From assembly GCA_031264865.1 (NCBI GenBank), contig JAISDJ010000177.1:1-36973 (forward strand): DNA of 36,973 nt, written 5' to 3'. Every line of letters starts with the position of its first letter. The stretch's first letter is position 1. The DNA is from Tannerellaceae bacterium (GTDB lineage Bacteria > Bacteroidota > Bacteroidia > Bacteroidales > Tannerellaceae). Positions 1-4,201 of the stretch are shown here, piece by piece. A program made the position numbers and the translations under genes. The notes beneath the pieces were generated by a model. It had not been told where the DNA came from. It saw nothing but the letters and a program-made list of their open reading frames with translations, and made no database searches.

Positions 1-219
1 TGTTATGTTTATTATATTTATTTTTTCTTTGCTACGAAGAAAACCATTTTCAATTAAAAAATTAGCATTCGTGTTATCACTACAACTGCTGACAGAGCCA
101 TTGTTTAAATAATCAGATAAAGCATTATATGTTTTATCGCTAATTAATATAATTTTCATTTTAGATGGAGAATATAAATATTTATATCCAAAGTCATCAT
201 TGTACAAAATCGGATCCAT
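1..219 (-). CDS. N-terminal part of a probable radical-SAM peptide maturase (truncated by window edge)
   Basis: An open frame of 73 codons starts at the ATG at 219 and runs off the left edge without a stop. It begins MDPILYNDDFGYKYLYSPSK and continues with a segment (KMKIILISDKTYNALSDYL) that resembles the N-terminal substrate-binding region of Bacteroidales radical-SAM/SPASM maturases; no CxxxCxxC cluster is reached. The position directly downstream of a GG-leader precursor peptide is where GG-Bacteroidales systems carry their maturase or pseudo-rSAM partner. Base composition matches the AT-rich genes to its right. The assignment rests on context and general resemblance. It could also be a pseudo-rSAM protein or another member of the cluster. 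That a gene is here is fairly sure; its function is tentative. Confidence 0.45.
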   Translation of the reverse strand, partial: MDPILYNDDFGYKYLYSPSKMKIILISDKTYNALSDYLNNGSVSSCSDNTNANFLIENGFLRSKEKINIINIT

Positions 220-417
220 TGTATTCAAGTATTATGATAATATATAATTATTTAATTAATAATGAGTTAATATTCATTTTTTTGCATGTTAATGGTCTTG
301 AATTTAGCTGCAATTAACAGAATAGCGACCAAAAGAATGTATTGTTGGATAATTTGATTGAAATACAGTTCAGTGGAAGTAAACCAATAACAAAATGATT
401 AACTATTATTTTGCGAA

Positions 418-454
418 ATTCGAATACGGAACGTATAGTTATCACTCTTCGAAT
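418..454. promoter_or_regulatory. Inverted repeat in the gap between precursor and maturase genes
   Basis: The gap 220-550 has no convincing gene on either strand. It holds a 7-nt inverted repeat (ATTCGAA at 418-424, TTCGAAT at 448-454) with a smaller TACG/CGTA pair inside its loop. No good TAnnTTTG promoter box was found on the minus strand here. The repeat could be an operator or RNA structure controlling the maturase gene that starts at 219. This is weak evidence from symmetry alone. Confidence 0.25.
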
Positions 455-500
455 CTCTGTAGATTACACTCTAATAGTTTATAATCGGAGACTATTAATA

Positions 501-526
501 GAAGGTGATGGAATTCCATCACCTTC
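501..526 (-). terminator. Perfect 13+13 nt palindrome after the precursor gene (terminator/attenuator or processing hairpin)
   Basis: A perfect 26-nt palindrome (arms beginning GAAGGTGATGG) lies 24 nt beyond the precursor's stop codon on the minus strand. It would fold into a strong RNA hairpin. There is no clean U-tract after it, only AU-rich sequence, so it may be a partial terminator or RNA-stabilising hairpin rather than a full terminator. Such a structure between a precursor and its maturase would make the precursor transcript more abundant than the downstream mRNA. Confidence 0.55.
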
Positions 527-550
527 CAAACTTTAATCTACCGAATCTTA

Positions 551-727
551 TTAGCCTTTAGTCACATTGTCATTCACACGATTGTATGAATAACCACTAG
601 AAAAAGCATAAGAAGATCCTACACTGCAGGAATCACAACCAGATGTGCTACATCTGTAATCACACTTGCCACCCAAAATTTTACTTTCTTCTTTTTTGGA
701 TAATTTAATTAATGACAATTTGTTCAT
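551..727 (-). CDS. GG-leader RiPP precursor peptide (TIGR04149-like)
   Basis: The 58-aa product has the leader signature of GG-Bacteroidales natural-product precursors: MNKLSLIKLSKKEE followed by SKILGG, a double-glycine site, then a 38-residue core. The core has four Cys in the order CDYRC...GCDSC and a Ser/Tyr/Gly-rich tail (SSYAFSSGYSYN). I chose the ATG at 727 because the family normally begins directly with the MNKL-type segment; an upstream in-frame ATG at 754 would add MFNNLIFLI. The gene lies 48 nt after the beta-propeller stop and is followed by a strong hairpin and the presumed maturase. The leader is probably cleaved after GG during export, as in related peptides. Whether Cys, Ser or Tyr residues are modified cannot be seen. 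The peptide class is well supported; the product chemistry is unknown. Confidence 0.8.
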   Translation of the reverse strand: MNKLSLIKLSKKEESKILGGKCDYRCSTSGCDSCSVGSSYAFSSGYSYNRVNDNVTKG

Positions 728-775
728 AATTAAAAAAATTAGATTGTTAAACATGTCCCATATATTATTATGGGC

Positions 776-1948
776 TTATTTTATATAGTGCAAAATAATT
801 ATAGGATTTGAGTCTTCATTATTTAAATAATTATGATATACTGAAGAATTCGAATTAATAATTTTATTTTCATTTAAATAGCACATCTCTTCATAGGTAC
901 AAATCTGAATTAGGATTTTTTCCTTTGGATAAATATTACATCCCCAAATAGGAATTCCTCCATCTTTATTTGGAATGCCAACAGATTGCATTTTTTGATT
1001 AAGCGATATTGCTTCAGATAGATTGATAGAGCTTTTCATCATCTGAGTTTTTTTATTTGTTTTGTCATAAGAAAATAGATACATTTCATGGTTTCGTATT
1101 GCTCGTAGATAAAAATTGTTGTTTAACTCAATGAAATCATATATGTCATATATATCTTCACTTATATCATTATCAAAAATTTCAATTGACTCTATTTTCT
1201 TATATGAAGAATTTCCTGTATTAATTGCATATGCATTACTTATTTTATCCTCAGTTAACCTAAAAATAGTATCGCAACTTGATACATAGCATAATACTTC
1301 ATTGTTTTTCGATGAGTTAGTAATAAATGTCCTCGAAAAACCTACCCTGTTGAAATCTTGTACATCTGTAGGGAAAATATCATTTTTTATTGCTATTGTA
1401 TCACCATGTAAACTGAAAATTCCTATTCCAAACATTTCAGGTACAGAATATGGTACATATTCAGCTCCTATTTCAGCAAAAGCATCATTGTTAATATGTC
1501 GTTGCCACGATATTCCTTTTTTATTAGGTACAGTTTCTAATAAATTACCCTCGAAATCGAATACTAAACAATTAAATAATTGAGATACATAAATTCTCTC
1601 TTTTTCTTCGTCAGCAGATACAGAAAGTATTAATGATGTTTCTTCCGGGCCATTTCCTGTCATTGCAAATGTACGGATATATTTACCACTTCTATCAAAT
1701 TGAAATACACCTCCTAATTTTAAAGATCGAATATAATAATATTCTTTAGTCATGCAAATATCAAGAATTCCTGCGATCAATACGCTATCGTCTAATATTA
1801 CATACTCTGTTTTTTTAAAGTTTTTTCTAATGTCGAATGTCTCATTAATAGAATTATTAATTTCAATTACATCAATTGAATTATATTTGAAATTTGACGA
1901 GCACCCCACAATAACAAATGCCATTAATACGAATGTGTAATTTTTCAT
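776..1948 (-). CDS. 6-bladed beta-propeller lipoprotein
   Basis: A 390-aa protein. The ATG at 1948 gives a classic lipoprotein signal (MKNYTFVLMAFVIVGCSS), whereas the longer frame to 2080 only adds an implausible N-terminus overlapping the upstream gene. After residue 40 it has the features of the Bacteroidales 6-bladed beta-propeller family (KNFKKTEYVILDD, FDRSGKYIRTFAMTGNGPEE), that is NHL-like blades with 'G.GPGE'-type turns. It probably sits in the outer membrane or periplasm. The start is 4 nt after the glycosyltransferase stop, so the two are co-transcribed, and the precursor peptide follows directly. Propeller lipoproteins recur beside small exported peptides in Bacteroidales; a role in binding or exporting the peptide is an inference. 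Confidence 0.75.
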   Translation of the reverse strand: MKNYTFVLMAFVIVGCSSNFKYNSIDVIEINNSINETFDIRKNFKKTEYVILDDSVLIAGILDICMTKEYYYIRSLKLGGVFQFDRSGKYIRTFAMTGNGPEETSLILSVSADEEKERIYVSQLFNCLVFDFEGNLLETVPNKKGISWQRHINNDAFAEIGAEYVPYSVPEMFGIGIFSLHGDTIAIKNDIFPTDVQDFNRVGFSRTFITNSSKNNEVLCYVSSCDTIFRLTEDKISNAYAINTGNSSYKKIESIEIFDNDISEDIYDIYDFIELNNNFYLRAIRNHEMYLFSYDKTNKKTQMMKSSINLSEAISLNQKMQSVGIPNKDGGIPIWGCNIYPKEKILIQICTYEEMCYLNENKIINSNSSVYHNYLNNEDSNPIIILHYIK

Positions 1949-1952
1949 GATT

Positions 1953-3080
1953 TTAAAATATTTTAGAATGATTATTGATATTAAATTTATTGATAAATAT
2001 ATTACGAGAGCATAAAGAATATGAATCTCTATTGCAATTGAGTAAATAATCAATTTTATTTGCAAGATCATTTTCGTCAATTGGAGGATTTTTTTCAGCA
2101 GAATAGGAGATTGAAAAACCGTTTTTATTATCTTGTATCATATCTTTAAAAGCATCTATTCTGGTTAATATAAGCGGCAATCCAAACATTAACATTTCAA
2201 TTACAACGTAATTACATTGTTCTTCGTAAGATGGAAGTACTCCAATATCTGATGATAAGTATAATTTATATAAATCATCTTGAGCTAAATTTCCCACAAA
2301 ATATATTTGATTCCAGAATCCAATAGTAAGTTTATAGAAATATGAAAAATCACCATCGCCTGCTATTATCAAAATGGCATTTGGGTTTTTCTGTGCTATT
2401 ATTTTGAATGAGTTAATTAAGTGTACCAATCCCTTGTTTATGACAAGTCGACCTACAAATAGTATAATTTTTGCATTTACTGGAAATGTTTTTTTTGCAA
2501 TTTCTTTTTCGTCATTTAATTTTTTTTGTAATAGAAAATCATTAAGTCTATTTCTTGTAAACTTTATTTTGTTTTTATCTATTTTGTACTGTACGATATA
2601 TTTTATATATGTTTTTTCTGACAATACAATTATCTCGTCAAATTTATTTAAAGATTTTTTTTTCATTTCAAATATAATATCTGAATCATCCTTTGAATTT
2701 TCACAATGTATTGTGACTAAAAAGTGAATTTTGCTTCGCTTTGATCTTAATTTTTCTATAATAGGATCACATAATAGATAGTTAAAATGGAATATAATAT
2801 TACCTGTTTTTGGAATATACTTCGATATTATATAGTATGAGTATTTGAAGTATAATTCATGGTTTTTAATTGATTTACTTTTACACGAATAATTTGGTAT
2901 GTGAATTCTGATTACATTTTTTTGATGGGAGTAAGATACCTTTTTTTCTAATGAAAATAGTATTATATGATATATGAAGTAATTACATGAAGTTAATTCA
3001 TTTATTAAATTATTAACATACGTTTTAACACCATACTTTGATGCTATGCATTCTTCGTCAATGATAAAATATGTGTTCAT
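1953..3080 (-). CDS. Family-4 glycosyltransferase of the GG-Bacteroidales peptide system
   Basis: A 375-aa cytoplasmic enzyme with a GT-B fold. The N-terminal half starts MNTYFIIDEECIASKYGVKTYVNNLINEL, the usual 'glycine/YGV..Y' acceptor-domain opening. The C-terminal half has the GT4 nucleotide-sugar site: FVGRLVINKGLVHLI near residue 215, then GVLPSYEEQCNYVVIEMLMFG with the EX7E-type pair near residues 285-295. Glycosyltransferases of this kind (TIGR04157-like) are a recognised component of GG-Bacteroidales peptide clusters. It lies between the LanC-like gene (94 nt upstream) and the propeller gene (4 nt downstream). It could glycosylate the Ser/Tyr-rich core peptide, but that target is inferred only from its place in the cluster. 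Confidence 0.75.
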   Translation of the reverse strand: MNTYFIIDEECIASKYGVKTYVNNLINELTSCNYFIYHIILFSLEKKVSYSHQKNVIRIHIPNYSCKSKSIKNHELYFKYSYYIISKYIPKTGNIIFHFNYLLCDPIIEKLRSKRSKIHFLVTIHCENSKDDSDIIFEMKKKSLNKFDEIIVLSEKTYIKYIVQYKIDKNKIKFTRNRLNDFLLQKKLNDEKEIAKKTFPVNAKIILFVGRLVINKGLVHLINSFKIIAQKNPNAILIIAGDGDFSYFYKLTIGFWNQIYFVGNLAQDDLYKLYLSSDIGVLPSYEEQCNYVVIEMLMFGLPLILTRIDAFKDMIQDNKNGFSISYSAEKNPPIDENDLANKIDYLLNCNRDSYSLCSRNIFINKFNINNHSKIF

Positions 3081-3174
3081 AATTATTTTGTATTAAATTT
3101 TATTTTGGCTTTAATTACATATGTAATAATTTGTGTTGATTGAAGTTGCATATATATTTAATACTGCATTTATT

Positions 3175-3837
3175 TTAAATATACTTATTTTTATTTTGAT
3201 ATGATCGTTTATTAAATATTATATTTAATAGGTATCCAGCACATCCATCTTTTATGCCTAATTCCCATTCATAGAATAAATTATTGCCAGGTGTATTTCC
3301 TGTTGTATTTAAGAGAATCGTGACATCATTTTGCTGCGTAAAGAATATGTTAATGTCATTCCATCCTCTAATGTACTTCTCGTCAAAAGGTGCAACAATT
3401 CTATGATTATTAGTAGAATTTATTCTTTTGCTGACGTAATGATATAATCCAGCTAAGCCGCTCTTAATACTTCGGTCTTTTATTCTACTAATATCCCATT
3501 CCATGATTTTATTATCTATTTCAACTAAAATTTCATCGGAATTTCCTTTTATAAACCCGTTTTCAATAAGATGTTCTATCCCCCATCCGATTCCACAAAG
3601 TCCATTTTCAAAATTAATTGGAACCTCATCATTAATATCATTAATTAATTCTCCAAGTAATTCATCTGCAAATTCTTCATAGATTGTTTCTCCGGTATAT
3701 CTGGCATAATGTGCAAAAGATAATACAATACCCATTTTTCCATGATATAAACTCATGTCATTAATAAAACATGAGTTTAGCATTAAATGCTGCGTCATAT
3801 TTAGTAAAAATGTATTTTCATAATATAGTTTGTTCAT
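3175..3837 (-). CDS. Short LanC-like protein of the peptide cluster
   Basis: A 220-aa protein with LanC-type repeats: YHGKMGIVLSFAHYARYTG near residue 32, NGLCGIGWGIEHL near residue 78, SGLAGLYHYVSKR near residue 125 and GIKDGCAGYLLNI near the C-terminus. Each 'GxxGxxxx' block is a typical inner-helix motif of the alpha/alpha barrel. Full-length LanC cyclases are about 400 aa and carry Cys-Cys-His zinc ligands in the C-terminal half. I see no CxG/CHG pair here, so this is probably a shortened or non-catalytic family member. No dehydratase (LanB/LanM) gene is in the window. It is the first gene of the island on the minus strand, starting only about 40 nt after the broken regulator. The fold is fairly sure; lanthionine synthesis is not implied. 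Confidence 0.65.
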   Translation of the reverse strand: MNKLYYENTFLLNMTQHLMLNSCFINDMSLYHGKMGIVLSFAHYARYTGETIYEEFADELLGELINDINDEVPINFENGLCGIGWGIEHLIENGFIKGNSDEILVEIDNKIMEWDISRIKDRSIKSGLAGLYHYVSKRINSTNNHRIVAPFDEKYIRGWNDINIFFTQQNDVTILLNTTGNTPGNNLFYEWELGIKDGCAGYLLNIIFNKRSYQNKNKYI

Positions 3838-3874: not shown

Positions 3875-4183
3875 TCAAGAACAACTATGTTGCAAACGGA
3901 ATGTACAGGAAAAATAATCTATGTTATCCCATTTTTCTTCATCATTTTTAAGATACCGCCAAATAGCCTTGTCCATATCGCTCCACAACGACAAATCATC
4001 GGGATAAATAATTTTAGAATAAAAATCGTATCCCGACTTTAGCACATCTTCGACAGAATGGCCGCATAGAAAAAGATCATCAGGCTTGATGTAGCAAAAT
4101 TGTTTTTTCCGTATGTCCAACACATAAAAACTTTCTGCTGTGATAGAAGAAATTATATCGAAATATCGAATGTGGTGTTCCAT
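3875..4183 (-). pseudogene. Truncated PAS/LuxR-type regulator (PAS part only)
   Basis: 102 aa starting at the ATG at 4183 (a TTG at 4201 would add six residues). The sequence MEHHIRYFDIISSITAESFY...IRKKQFCYIKPDDLFLCGHS is the PAS-like sensor half of a Bacteroidales LuxR-family regulator that is normally about 230 aa. It ends abruptly after CTFRLQ with HSCS and a stop. The expected second half (rest of the PAS domain, linker and C-terminal HTH) is absent from all frames downstream, where the LanC-like gene begins instead. The break therefore coincides with the composition change at the edge of the AT-rich peptide cluster. It follows the DUF3244 gene with 18 nt between them. The stump may be untranslated or may act as a PAS-only protein. 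Confidence 0.65.
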
Positions 4184-4201
4184 CTCTATTAGACTTACCA
4201 A

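What the first reader, a model, noticed from the sequence alone, without database searches (positions are those of the whole stretch)
1..3837. GG-Bacteroidales RiPP locus combining a LanC-like protein, glycosyltransferase and beta-propeller
Five adjacent minus-strand genes of uniform AT-rich composition encode a double-glycine leader peptide, a probable maturase, a GT4 glycosyltransferase, a propeller lipoprotein and a LanC-like protein. Established knowledge: GG-leader peptides, rSAM maturases and dedicated glycosyltransferases form recognised Bacteroidales systems. The combination with a LanC-like protein and a propeller lipoprotein, without a dehydratase in the window, suggests a modified, possibly glycosylated, surface-delivered peptide of unknown chemistry.
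Basis: partly seen in the sequence, partly recalled or inferred. Interest (0 to 1): 0.75.

Follow-up and report, generated by a model that had tools for sequence, protein, structure and literature searches.

The report
Peptide-modifying locus with glycosyltransferase-paired half LanC
A Bacteroidales genome carries a gene set that makes and probably sugar-coats a small exported peptide, and its "LanC-like" protein looks like a dead half-enzyme that works as a partner of the sugar-adding enzyme and not as a ring-forming cyclase.

Summary
The genes are there. On the minus strand, at 25-28% GC: half-size LanC-like protein (3175-3837), GT4 glycosyltransferase (1953-3080), propeller lipoprotein (776-1948), GG-leader peptide (551-754), and the first 75 aa of a gene cut by the contig end, most likely a radical-SAM maturase. 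A sibling locus of the same genome has half-LanC, GT4, rSAM (TIGR04148), pseudo-rSAM (TIGR04150) and TIGR04149 peptide in a row. The combination rSAM + LanC + glycosyltransferase is already in print (PMC10352776), so the locus belongs to a known kind. What I add is a role for the LanC-like protein. It covers only the N-terminal part of LanC and lacks zinc ligands. Of 45 complete half-size relatives, 38 are directly followed by a GT4 gene (2.1% of control genes are). The domain is fused to GT4 in both orders and to GT2. The pair occurs with rSAM, VKOR or LanB chemistry, and the LanB loci also hold a separate zinc-type LanC. Best reading: half-LanC plus GT4 is a glycosylation cassette acting on a GG-leader RiPP. 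Sugar, site and bioactivity are unknown; nothing was tested at the bench. The window copy may be damaged.

The parts
3..228 (-). N-terminal 75 aa of a gene cut by the contig end, most likely a radical-SAM/SPASM peptide maturase
   Evidence: TIGR04068 E 2.3e-4; own rSAM N-terminal profile E 1.5e-5 among frames of the first 12 kb and best of the frames not called rSAM among 6376, E 0.0015; pairwise not significant
551..754 (-). Precursor peptide, 67 aa from the first ATG or 58 aa from the inner ATG at 727; leader ending ...LSKKEESKILGG, Cys- and Ser-rich core
   Evidence: Sequence; TIGR04149 10.7 bits, sub-threshold, not listed in the own-genome search; alignment with 3 sibling peptides, invariant LS..E and GG
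776..1948 (-). Six-bladed beta-propeller lipoprotein, 390 aa
   Evidence: PF17170 1.7e-13; N-terminus MKNYTFVLMAFVIVGCSS read by eye; propellers, by own profile, in 24 of 79 related loci
1953..3080 (-). GT4 glycosyltransferase, 375 aa, TIGR04157-like
   Evidence: PF00534 8e-29; TIGR04157 248 bits, cut-off 400; E-x7-E and GR...KG kept in 4 of 4 copies aligned from this genome (motif meaning recalled)
3175..3837 (-). Half-size LanC-like protein, 220 aa, no zinc ligands; proposed partner of the GT4
   Evidence: PF05147 1.5e-9 on profile 3-124/350; 46-row alignment, of which 45 match LANC_like; that alignment matches parts of the LanC domains of LicM2 and LanKC, and weakly NisC (E 0.35), in solved structures
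3875..4201 (-). Truncated N-terminal part of a regulator; its 265-aa relative on C213 carries a LuxR-type HTH and lies directly upstream of a TIGR04149 peptide
   Evidence: 39% identity over residues 17-106 to C213:17556-17825; C213 layout; GerE/LuxR domain at residues 202-256 of the C213 protein

Best explanation
This is one of several RiPP loci of this genome. A GG-leader precursor peptide is modified by a radical-SAM maturase (only its start lies on the contig). It is glycosylated by a GT4 enzyme that works together with a zinc-less, half-size LanC domain. It is then exported by a C39 transporter encoded elsewhere. The propeller lipoprotein probably acts outside the cytoplasm, in delivery or sensing. 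The half-LanC is not a cyclase; it most likely binds and presents the peptide to the glycosyltransferase, or stabilises that enzyme. Shown by sequence: gene content, size and conserved part of the LanC domain, lack of zinc ligands, adjacency and fusions with glycosyltransferases, independence from rSAM chemistry. Inferred: that the peptide is the acceptor, that the two proteins form a complex, the order of steps, export and outer location.
For: The LanC search found 121 relatives and kept the best 80, 79 loci. Among these 79: GT4 within 300 bases downstream in 47 (one placed by hand), fused in 3, a GT7C-like gene between in 6, split LanC then GT4 in 1, GT2-LanC fusion with GT4 at the contig end in 1, GT2-LanC fusion without GT4 in 1, contig end in 7, masked in 1, no GT4 within 2.5 kb in 12. 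Of 45 complete half-size copies 38 are directly followed by GT4; of 717 other genes in these loci 15 (2.1%) are. Reading frames overlap in 33 of 46 measured pairs, 21 by the same 4 bases (starts taken mechanically). Fusions: LanC-GT4 (L039, L073), GT4-LanC (L094); 9 GT2-LanC frames, two also with GT7C. GT2 is by Pfam in all nine; LanC is listed by Pfam in five of them (over the cut-off in two) and by my own profile in all nine. On the LanC tree the 3 GT4 fusions need 3 changes, all forced by starred branches. LanC and GT4 distances correlate, r 0.70, 0 of 5000 permutations (40 half-size pairs). The 58 pair loci carry VKOR only (22), rSAM or pseudo-rSAM only (14), LanB only (4), a pseudo-rSAM fragment + VKOR (1), rSAM + LanB (1), none seen (16), by own profiles. 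In L028, L043, L079 and L091 a separate zinc-type LanC and LanB stand beside the pair. Zinc pattern: none of 45 half-size and none of 25 full-length relatives.
Against: 12 of 79 LanC loci have no GT4 within 2.5 kb, 9 of them among the 25 full-length relatives. Of 7 GT4 matches outside this genome, 4 show no LanC domain in the fetched flank (1.5 kb upstream, 0.9 kb in one). The correlation of distances does not control fully for shared ancestry. The window pair is atypical: 95 bases apart, and the GT4 lacks some 20-28 residues in its N-terminal half that its siblings have. The mature rSAM part is not on the contig, and no transporter was seen among the window frames read. The precursor leader is sub-threshold. 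The structure of the complex could not be predicted. No chemistry was observed.
Confidence: 0.6

Rival explanations
1. The LanC-like protein is a real, zinc-independent cyclase or thiol-addition enzyme that closes thioether rings on Cys residues of the peptide.
For: LanC homology is real (Pfam 1.5e-9; 45 of 46 half-size proteins match); the core has four Cys and many Ser.
Against: Only the N-terminal part is present; the zinc pattern is in none of 45 half-size copies; no dehydratase among eight window proteins; four lanthipeptide loci with the pair have a separate zinc-type LanC; the 12 fusions examined join it to glycosyltransferases.
Confidence: 0.08
2. The LanC-like protein is a glycoside hydrolase-like toroid (the view of PMC10352776: more similar to endoglucanases) that trims a sugar.
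For: LanC and several glycosidases share an alpha/alpha toroid (recalled); published suggestion.
Against: No glycosidase family at E up to 0.01 in 46 half-size and 24 full-length zinc-less proteins; a half toroid would lack a closed cleft (inference); linkage is to sugar-adding enzymes.
Confidence: 0.08
3. The GT4/half-LanC pair builds a surface glycan or glycolipid and is only a neighbour of the peptide genes.
For: Genes that look like a polysaccharide locus (by eye) precede the C88 copy; GT2 and GT7C partners could build a glycan chain.
Against: rSAM, VKOR or LanB genes lie near the pair in 42 of 58 pair loci; the C88 copy is in one run with rSAM, pseudo-rSAM and TIGR04149 peptide.
Confidence: 0.14
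4. The window locus is a decaying remnant and makes no product, whatever the family does.
For: Truncated regulator; relics and broken copies of the same genes elsewhere in the genome; shortened GT4; sub-threshold leader.
Against: The four complete genes are open and LanC and GT4 keep the conserved residues.
Confidence: 0.25

Closest known systems
Bacteroidales rSAM-GG RiPP system (TIGR04148 rSAM, TIGR04149 peptide, TIGR04150 pseudo-rSAM, TIGR04157 glycosyltransferase)
   Same: GT4 of TIGR04157 type, GG leader, propeller lipoprotein, probable rSAM; sibling C88 passes the TIGR04148, 04149 and 04150 cut-offs
   Different: Window peptide and GT4 score below the cut-offs; Cys pattern differs from the CCxCxC cores of the C88 sibling and of L031, L035; rSAM cut, pseudo-rSAM not on contig
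BGC3, BGC4, BGC5 of Fernandez-Cantos et al. 2023 (PMC10352776)
   Same: rSAM + pseudo-rSAM + LanC without zinc triad, with glycosyltransferase in BGC3
   Different: That paper notes carbohydrate enzymes near the LanC genes and reads the LanC as endoglucanase-like; a pairing or fusion with GT4/GT2 is not mentioned in the two sections and passages I read
Class I lanthipeptide synthesis (LanB, LanC)
   Same: LanC-like family; some pair-bearing relatives are in LanB/LanC loci
   Different: No LanB among the window proteins scanned, half-size LanC without zinc ligands
Glycocins (sublancin, glycocin F; recalled)
   Same: GG-leader Cys-rich peptide, glycosyltransferase, C39 exporter, and in many relatives a VKOR-thioredoxin protein that could form disulfides
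   Different: Glycocin enzymes are GT2-type S-glycosyltransferases without a LanC partner (recalled); here GT4 with half-LanC

Membership tests
rSAM-GG RiPP system of Bacteroidales | Precursor leader over the TIGR04149 cut-off (25 bits) | tested here: not met
   10.7 bits, E 0.39, the one match listed at E up to 1; own-genome search did not list it at E 0.1
rSAM-GG RiPP system of Bacteroidales | Radical-SAM/SPASM maturase with CX3CX2C | tested here: inconclusive
   Only 75 N-terminal aa on the contig; N-terminal profile match to maturases, pairwise not significant
rSAM-GG RiPP system of Bacteroidales | Pseudo-rSAM TIGR04150 next to the rSAM | not testable with these tools
   Contig ends; the only copy found in the genome is on C88
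rSAM-GG RiPP system of Bacteroidales | TIGR04157 glycosyltransferase over cut-off (400 bits) | tested here: not met
   248 bits; the three sibling copies with full-length matches also fall short at 361-383 bits
LanC lanthionine cyclase | Zinc triad C...CH in the C-terminal half | tested here: not met
   Match ends at profile position 124 of 350; pattern absent
Class I lanthipeptide locus | LanB dehydratase | tested here: not met
   None among the eight window proteins scanned; contig ends to the left
Glycocin | S-glycosylated Cys-rich GG-leader peptide | not testable with these tools
   Needs mass spectrometry

The most novel reading that the evidence does not exclude
A zinc-less half-LanC domain has been turned into an obligate acceptor-handling subunit of peptide glycosyltransferases. 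Together they form a portable glycosylation cassette that Bacteroidota attach to at least three unrelated RiPP chemistries (radical-SAM, VKOR/disulfide and LanB/LanC lanthipeptides), and with GT2 and GT7C partners it builds longer sugars, so a large class of glycosylated RiPPs in gut bacteria has gone unrecognised.
Probability: 0.45. Interest if true: 0.8.

Novelty: new variant of a known kind. Interest (0 to 1): 0.55.

Why it matters
The many 'LanC without LanB' calls in Bacteroidales genome mining have been a puzzle and were set aside as endoglucanase-like (PMC10352776). If the domain is a glycosyltransferase partner, these calls become a marker for glycosylated RiPPs in common gut bacteria. 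A single co-expression test (peptide, GT4, with and without half-LanC) would decide it.

Tried and rejected
Rejected: lanthionine synthesis by the LanC-like protein (no zinc ligands, half size, no dehydratase seen). Rejected: the combination as new in itself (PMC10352776). Rejected by sequence: a glycosidase role (no such family in 46 half-size and 24 full-length proteins). Tried without result: viral contigs hold no relative by tblastn (54 pattern matches, none confirmed). Plasmid records: 6 with partial matches at 27-43% identity, none covering 80% of the query. The rest of the cut rSAM gene was not found as a contig-edge fragment: TIGR04148 matches on C88, C309 and C290 only. No close copy of the locus in 17 other genomes of the genus: two short matches at E about 8e-5. 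A mixed alignment of LanC, GT4 and fusions came out badly and was redone, but its use, structure prediction, was not available.

Paper searches, all in PMC open-licence text: (10 of 10). In the listings and the passages I read I found no paper that describes the LanC-like domain as a glycosyltransferase partner; most subscription papers are not in that library. Read: PMC10352776 (passages, and sections 13 and 16 whole); PMC4573289, PMC7268733, PMC4922554 (passages only). All others: search listing only.

Limits of my counts: the 79 loci were found with motifs of LanC proteins from this genome and are the best 80 of 121, so they sample the glycosyltransferase-linked branch. Many contigs end early, so 'none seen' is a lower bound. 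Gene classes in these loci (GT4, rSAM, pseudo-rSAM, VKOR, C39 transporter, HlyD, propeller, LanB) were called with profiles that I built from a few proteins; only some were checked with Pfam or NCBIfam. L033 was put among the adjacent ones by hand (its frames overlap by more than the script allowed), and L074 has a LanC frame open at the contig start. The tree is a quick search; the split of zinc LanC from the rest rests on 4 rows with support 82, and 3 of the 7 zinc-pattern frames are not in it. Its half-size label includes fragments. L049 and L051 are two copies from one record, L060 and L061 near copies; they were counted apart, except that identical LanC copies were dropped in the 40 distance pairs.
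Full report
What is in the window. The window is contig C108 of a 4.69 Mb, 376-contig assembly, from base 1, so the left end is an assembly break. The first four 1-kb bins have 25-28% GC, the other bins 31-55%. On the minus strand, in order of reading: LanC-like protein 3837-3175, GT4 3080-1953, propeller lipoprotein 1948-776, GG-leader peptide 754-551, and a gene that starts at 228 and runs off the contig. Family scans support GT4 (PF00534 8e-29; TIGR04157 248 bits against a cut-off of 400), the propeller (PF17170 1.7e-13) and LanC (PF05147 1.5e-9, profile positions 3-124 of 350 only).

The two weak parts. The peptide gets one NCBIfam match at E up to 1, TIGR04149, at 10.7 bits (E 0.39; cut-off 25); the search of the genome with TIGR04149 listed four other peptides and not this one. 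It aligns with three sibling peptides through LS..E and GG. My leader profile from 19 distinct peptides of other loci puts it first among short frames of the first 12 kb but only at E 0.075. The cut gene matches the N-terminus of TIGR04068 at 2.3e-4. TIGR04148 starts at residue 68 of the C88 maturase, so silence of that model on 75 aa says little. With an N-terminal profile from 13 rSAM proteins the fragment scores 17.5 bits. Among 6376 frames of all loci it is 23rd (E 0.0015), behind 22 of the 30 frames that labelled rSAM, some of which built the profile, and ahead of every frame not so labelled. Pairwise against 23 rSAM proteins nothing is significant (best 0.085).

The same genome shows the whole layout. 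Contig C88 has, in one run: half-LanC, GT4, rSAM (TIGR04148, 448 bits, cut-off 300), pseudo-rSAM (TIGR04150, 365 bits, cut-off 250), peptide (TIGR04149, 45 bits, cut-off 25), then the start of a lipoprotein-like gene (by eye). C62 has half-LanC, GT4, two GG peptides (TIGR04149 22 and 17 bits, below cut-off) and a VKOR-thioredoxin protein. C230 has a frame-broken half-LanC, GT4, a C39-peptidase ABC transporter and a HlyD protein. C191 has a propeller, a broken half-LanC and a broken GT4 at the contig end. C213 has a LuxR-type regulator, a TIGR04149 peptide (50 bits) and a propeller.

Relatives. A search with the LanC alignment of this genome found 121 relatives and kept the best 80, which are 79 loci, nearly all titled Bacteroidota. 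Of 46 half-size proteins 45 match LANC_like, and all 24 full-length ones scanned do; no glycosidase family appears at E up to 0.01. Zinc ligands: the 25 full-length relatives (325-470 aa) contain no CH dipeptide; 3 of 45 half-size proteins contain a CH dipeptide but none has the C[YFNH]G...CHG pattern; seven other LanC-matching frames in these loci do have it. In solved structures the half-size profile matches parts of the LanC domains of LicM2 (1.5e-4) and LanKC (1.3e-3), and NisC residues 30-174 only at E 0.35. Invariant in 46 rows are G33, G36, G79, G82, I83 and G130; nearly so, among others, K34, W85, E88, Y89, D108, D121.

The glycosyltransferase link. GT4 within 300 bases downstream 47, fused 3, GT7C-like gene between 6, split LanC then GT4 1, GT2-LanC fusion with GT4 at the contig end 1, GT2-LanC fusion without GT4 1, contig end 7, masked 1, no GT4 within 2.5 kb 12: total 79. 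Half-size copies: 38 of 45 adjacent, 3 without, 3 at contig ends, 1 masked. Full-length copies: 8 adjacent, 6 with a gene between, 9 without, 2 at contig ends, of 25. Control: 15 of 717 other genes in the loci are followed by GT4 within 300 bases. The three half-size exceptions: L030 has GT4 pieces further down, L050 has a broken GT4 further down and a second pair on the other strand, L093 has none. Fusions exist in both orders with GT4 (L039, L073: LanC first; L094: GT4 first) and with GT2 in nine frames, in two of them also with GT7C. In the GT2 fusions the LanC part rests on my profile in all nine and on a Pfam match in five, over the Pfam cut-off in two (L036 and L094). On the tree the GT4 fusions need three separate changes. 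Against: of 7 GT4 matches outside this genome found by GT4 alone, 4 show no LanC within the fetched flank. So the LanC seems to need the GT more than the GT needs the LanC.

Independence from one chemistry. The 58 pair loci, by own profiles: VKOR only 22, rSAM or pseudo-rSAM only 14, LanB only 4, pseudo-rSAM fragment + VKOR 1, rSAM + LanB 1, none seen 16. Pfam confirms Lant_dehydr_N in L028, L043, L060, L079, L091 and Lant_dehydr_C in the same five, in L028 as a partial match of a gene in pieces. A zinc-type LanC is in the same loci by pattern, and a full-length LANC_like match was checked for L028, L043 and L079. These loci are a natural control: they own a real cyclase and still keep a zinc-less LanC next to GT4. 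In L091 that partner is full length, not half size. PMC10352776 states that LanB is absent from Bacteroidales; L060 (Bacteroides fragilis chromosome) and the assemblies L028, L043 and L091 do not fit that, and PMC4922554 (passage) had already reported LanB and LanC in B. fragilis strains.

How it most likely works. Leader-guided rSAM modification of the Cys-rich core, glycosylation by GT4 with half-LanC as acceptor-handling partner, GG cleavage and export by a C39 transporter encoded elsewhere (one is on C230), propeller lipoprotein outside the cytoplasm. Gene content, truncation, missing ligands and linkage are shown; complex formation, acceptor, order and export are inferred. In many relatives VKOR-thioredoxin takes the place of rSAM, which resembles glycocins in layout (glycocin features recalled, from no call).

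Known or new. The combination rSAM + LanC + glycosyltransferase is published: 41 of 1340 areas of interest in that paper's Table 1 carry rSAM + LanC + GlyS and 263 rSAM + LanC, with zinc-less LanC in BGC3-5. The authors note carbohydrate enzymes nearby and favour an endoglucanase-like role. The partner role proposed here, with adjacency, fusions and the lanthipeptide-locus control, was not found in the ten searches made. I therefore file the locus as a variant of a known kind and keep the bolder reading separate.

Health of the window copy. The regulator frame 3875-4201 stops where its C213 relative goes on to the HTH, LanC and GT4 are 95 bases apart and not overlapping, and the GT4 is shorter than its siblings. 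The peptide, propeller, GT4 and LanC genes are open. Function of this copy is uncertain.

Noticed in passing
window 3875-4201: N-terminal part of a LuxR-type regulator without its HTH; the 265-aa relative on C213 lies directly upstream of a TIGR04149 peptide and propeller.
   Followed up: partly
window 734-902; L006 13766-13936: 95% identical copy of the 3' end of the propeller gene on contig C134, a contig that also holds a GT4 3' fragment at its start: scattered relics of the same kind of locus.
   Followed up: partly
L177 5830-6051; L022 1208-1905; L023 773-1638: Half-LanC relic (C173) and frame-broken half-LanC genes (C230, C191) in the same genome; assembly error is not excluded.
   Followed up: partly
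L060 789-3835: Bacteroides fragilis Q1F2 carries split LanB genes (Pfam) near LanC-GT4 genes, contrary to the statement in PMC10352776 that LanB is absent from Bacteroidales; LanB in other B. fragilis strains is already in print (PMC4922554, passage).
   Followed up: yes
L070, L078, L082, L086, L092, L097: A 260-273 aa galactosyltransferase-like gene (GT7C by Pfam in the one scanned, L082) sits between full-length LanC-like and GT4.
   Followed up: partly
L021 11676-12482: IS66-family transposase (Pfam) upstream of the half-LanC of C62, on the same strand.
   Followed up: partly
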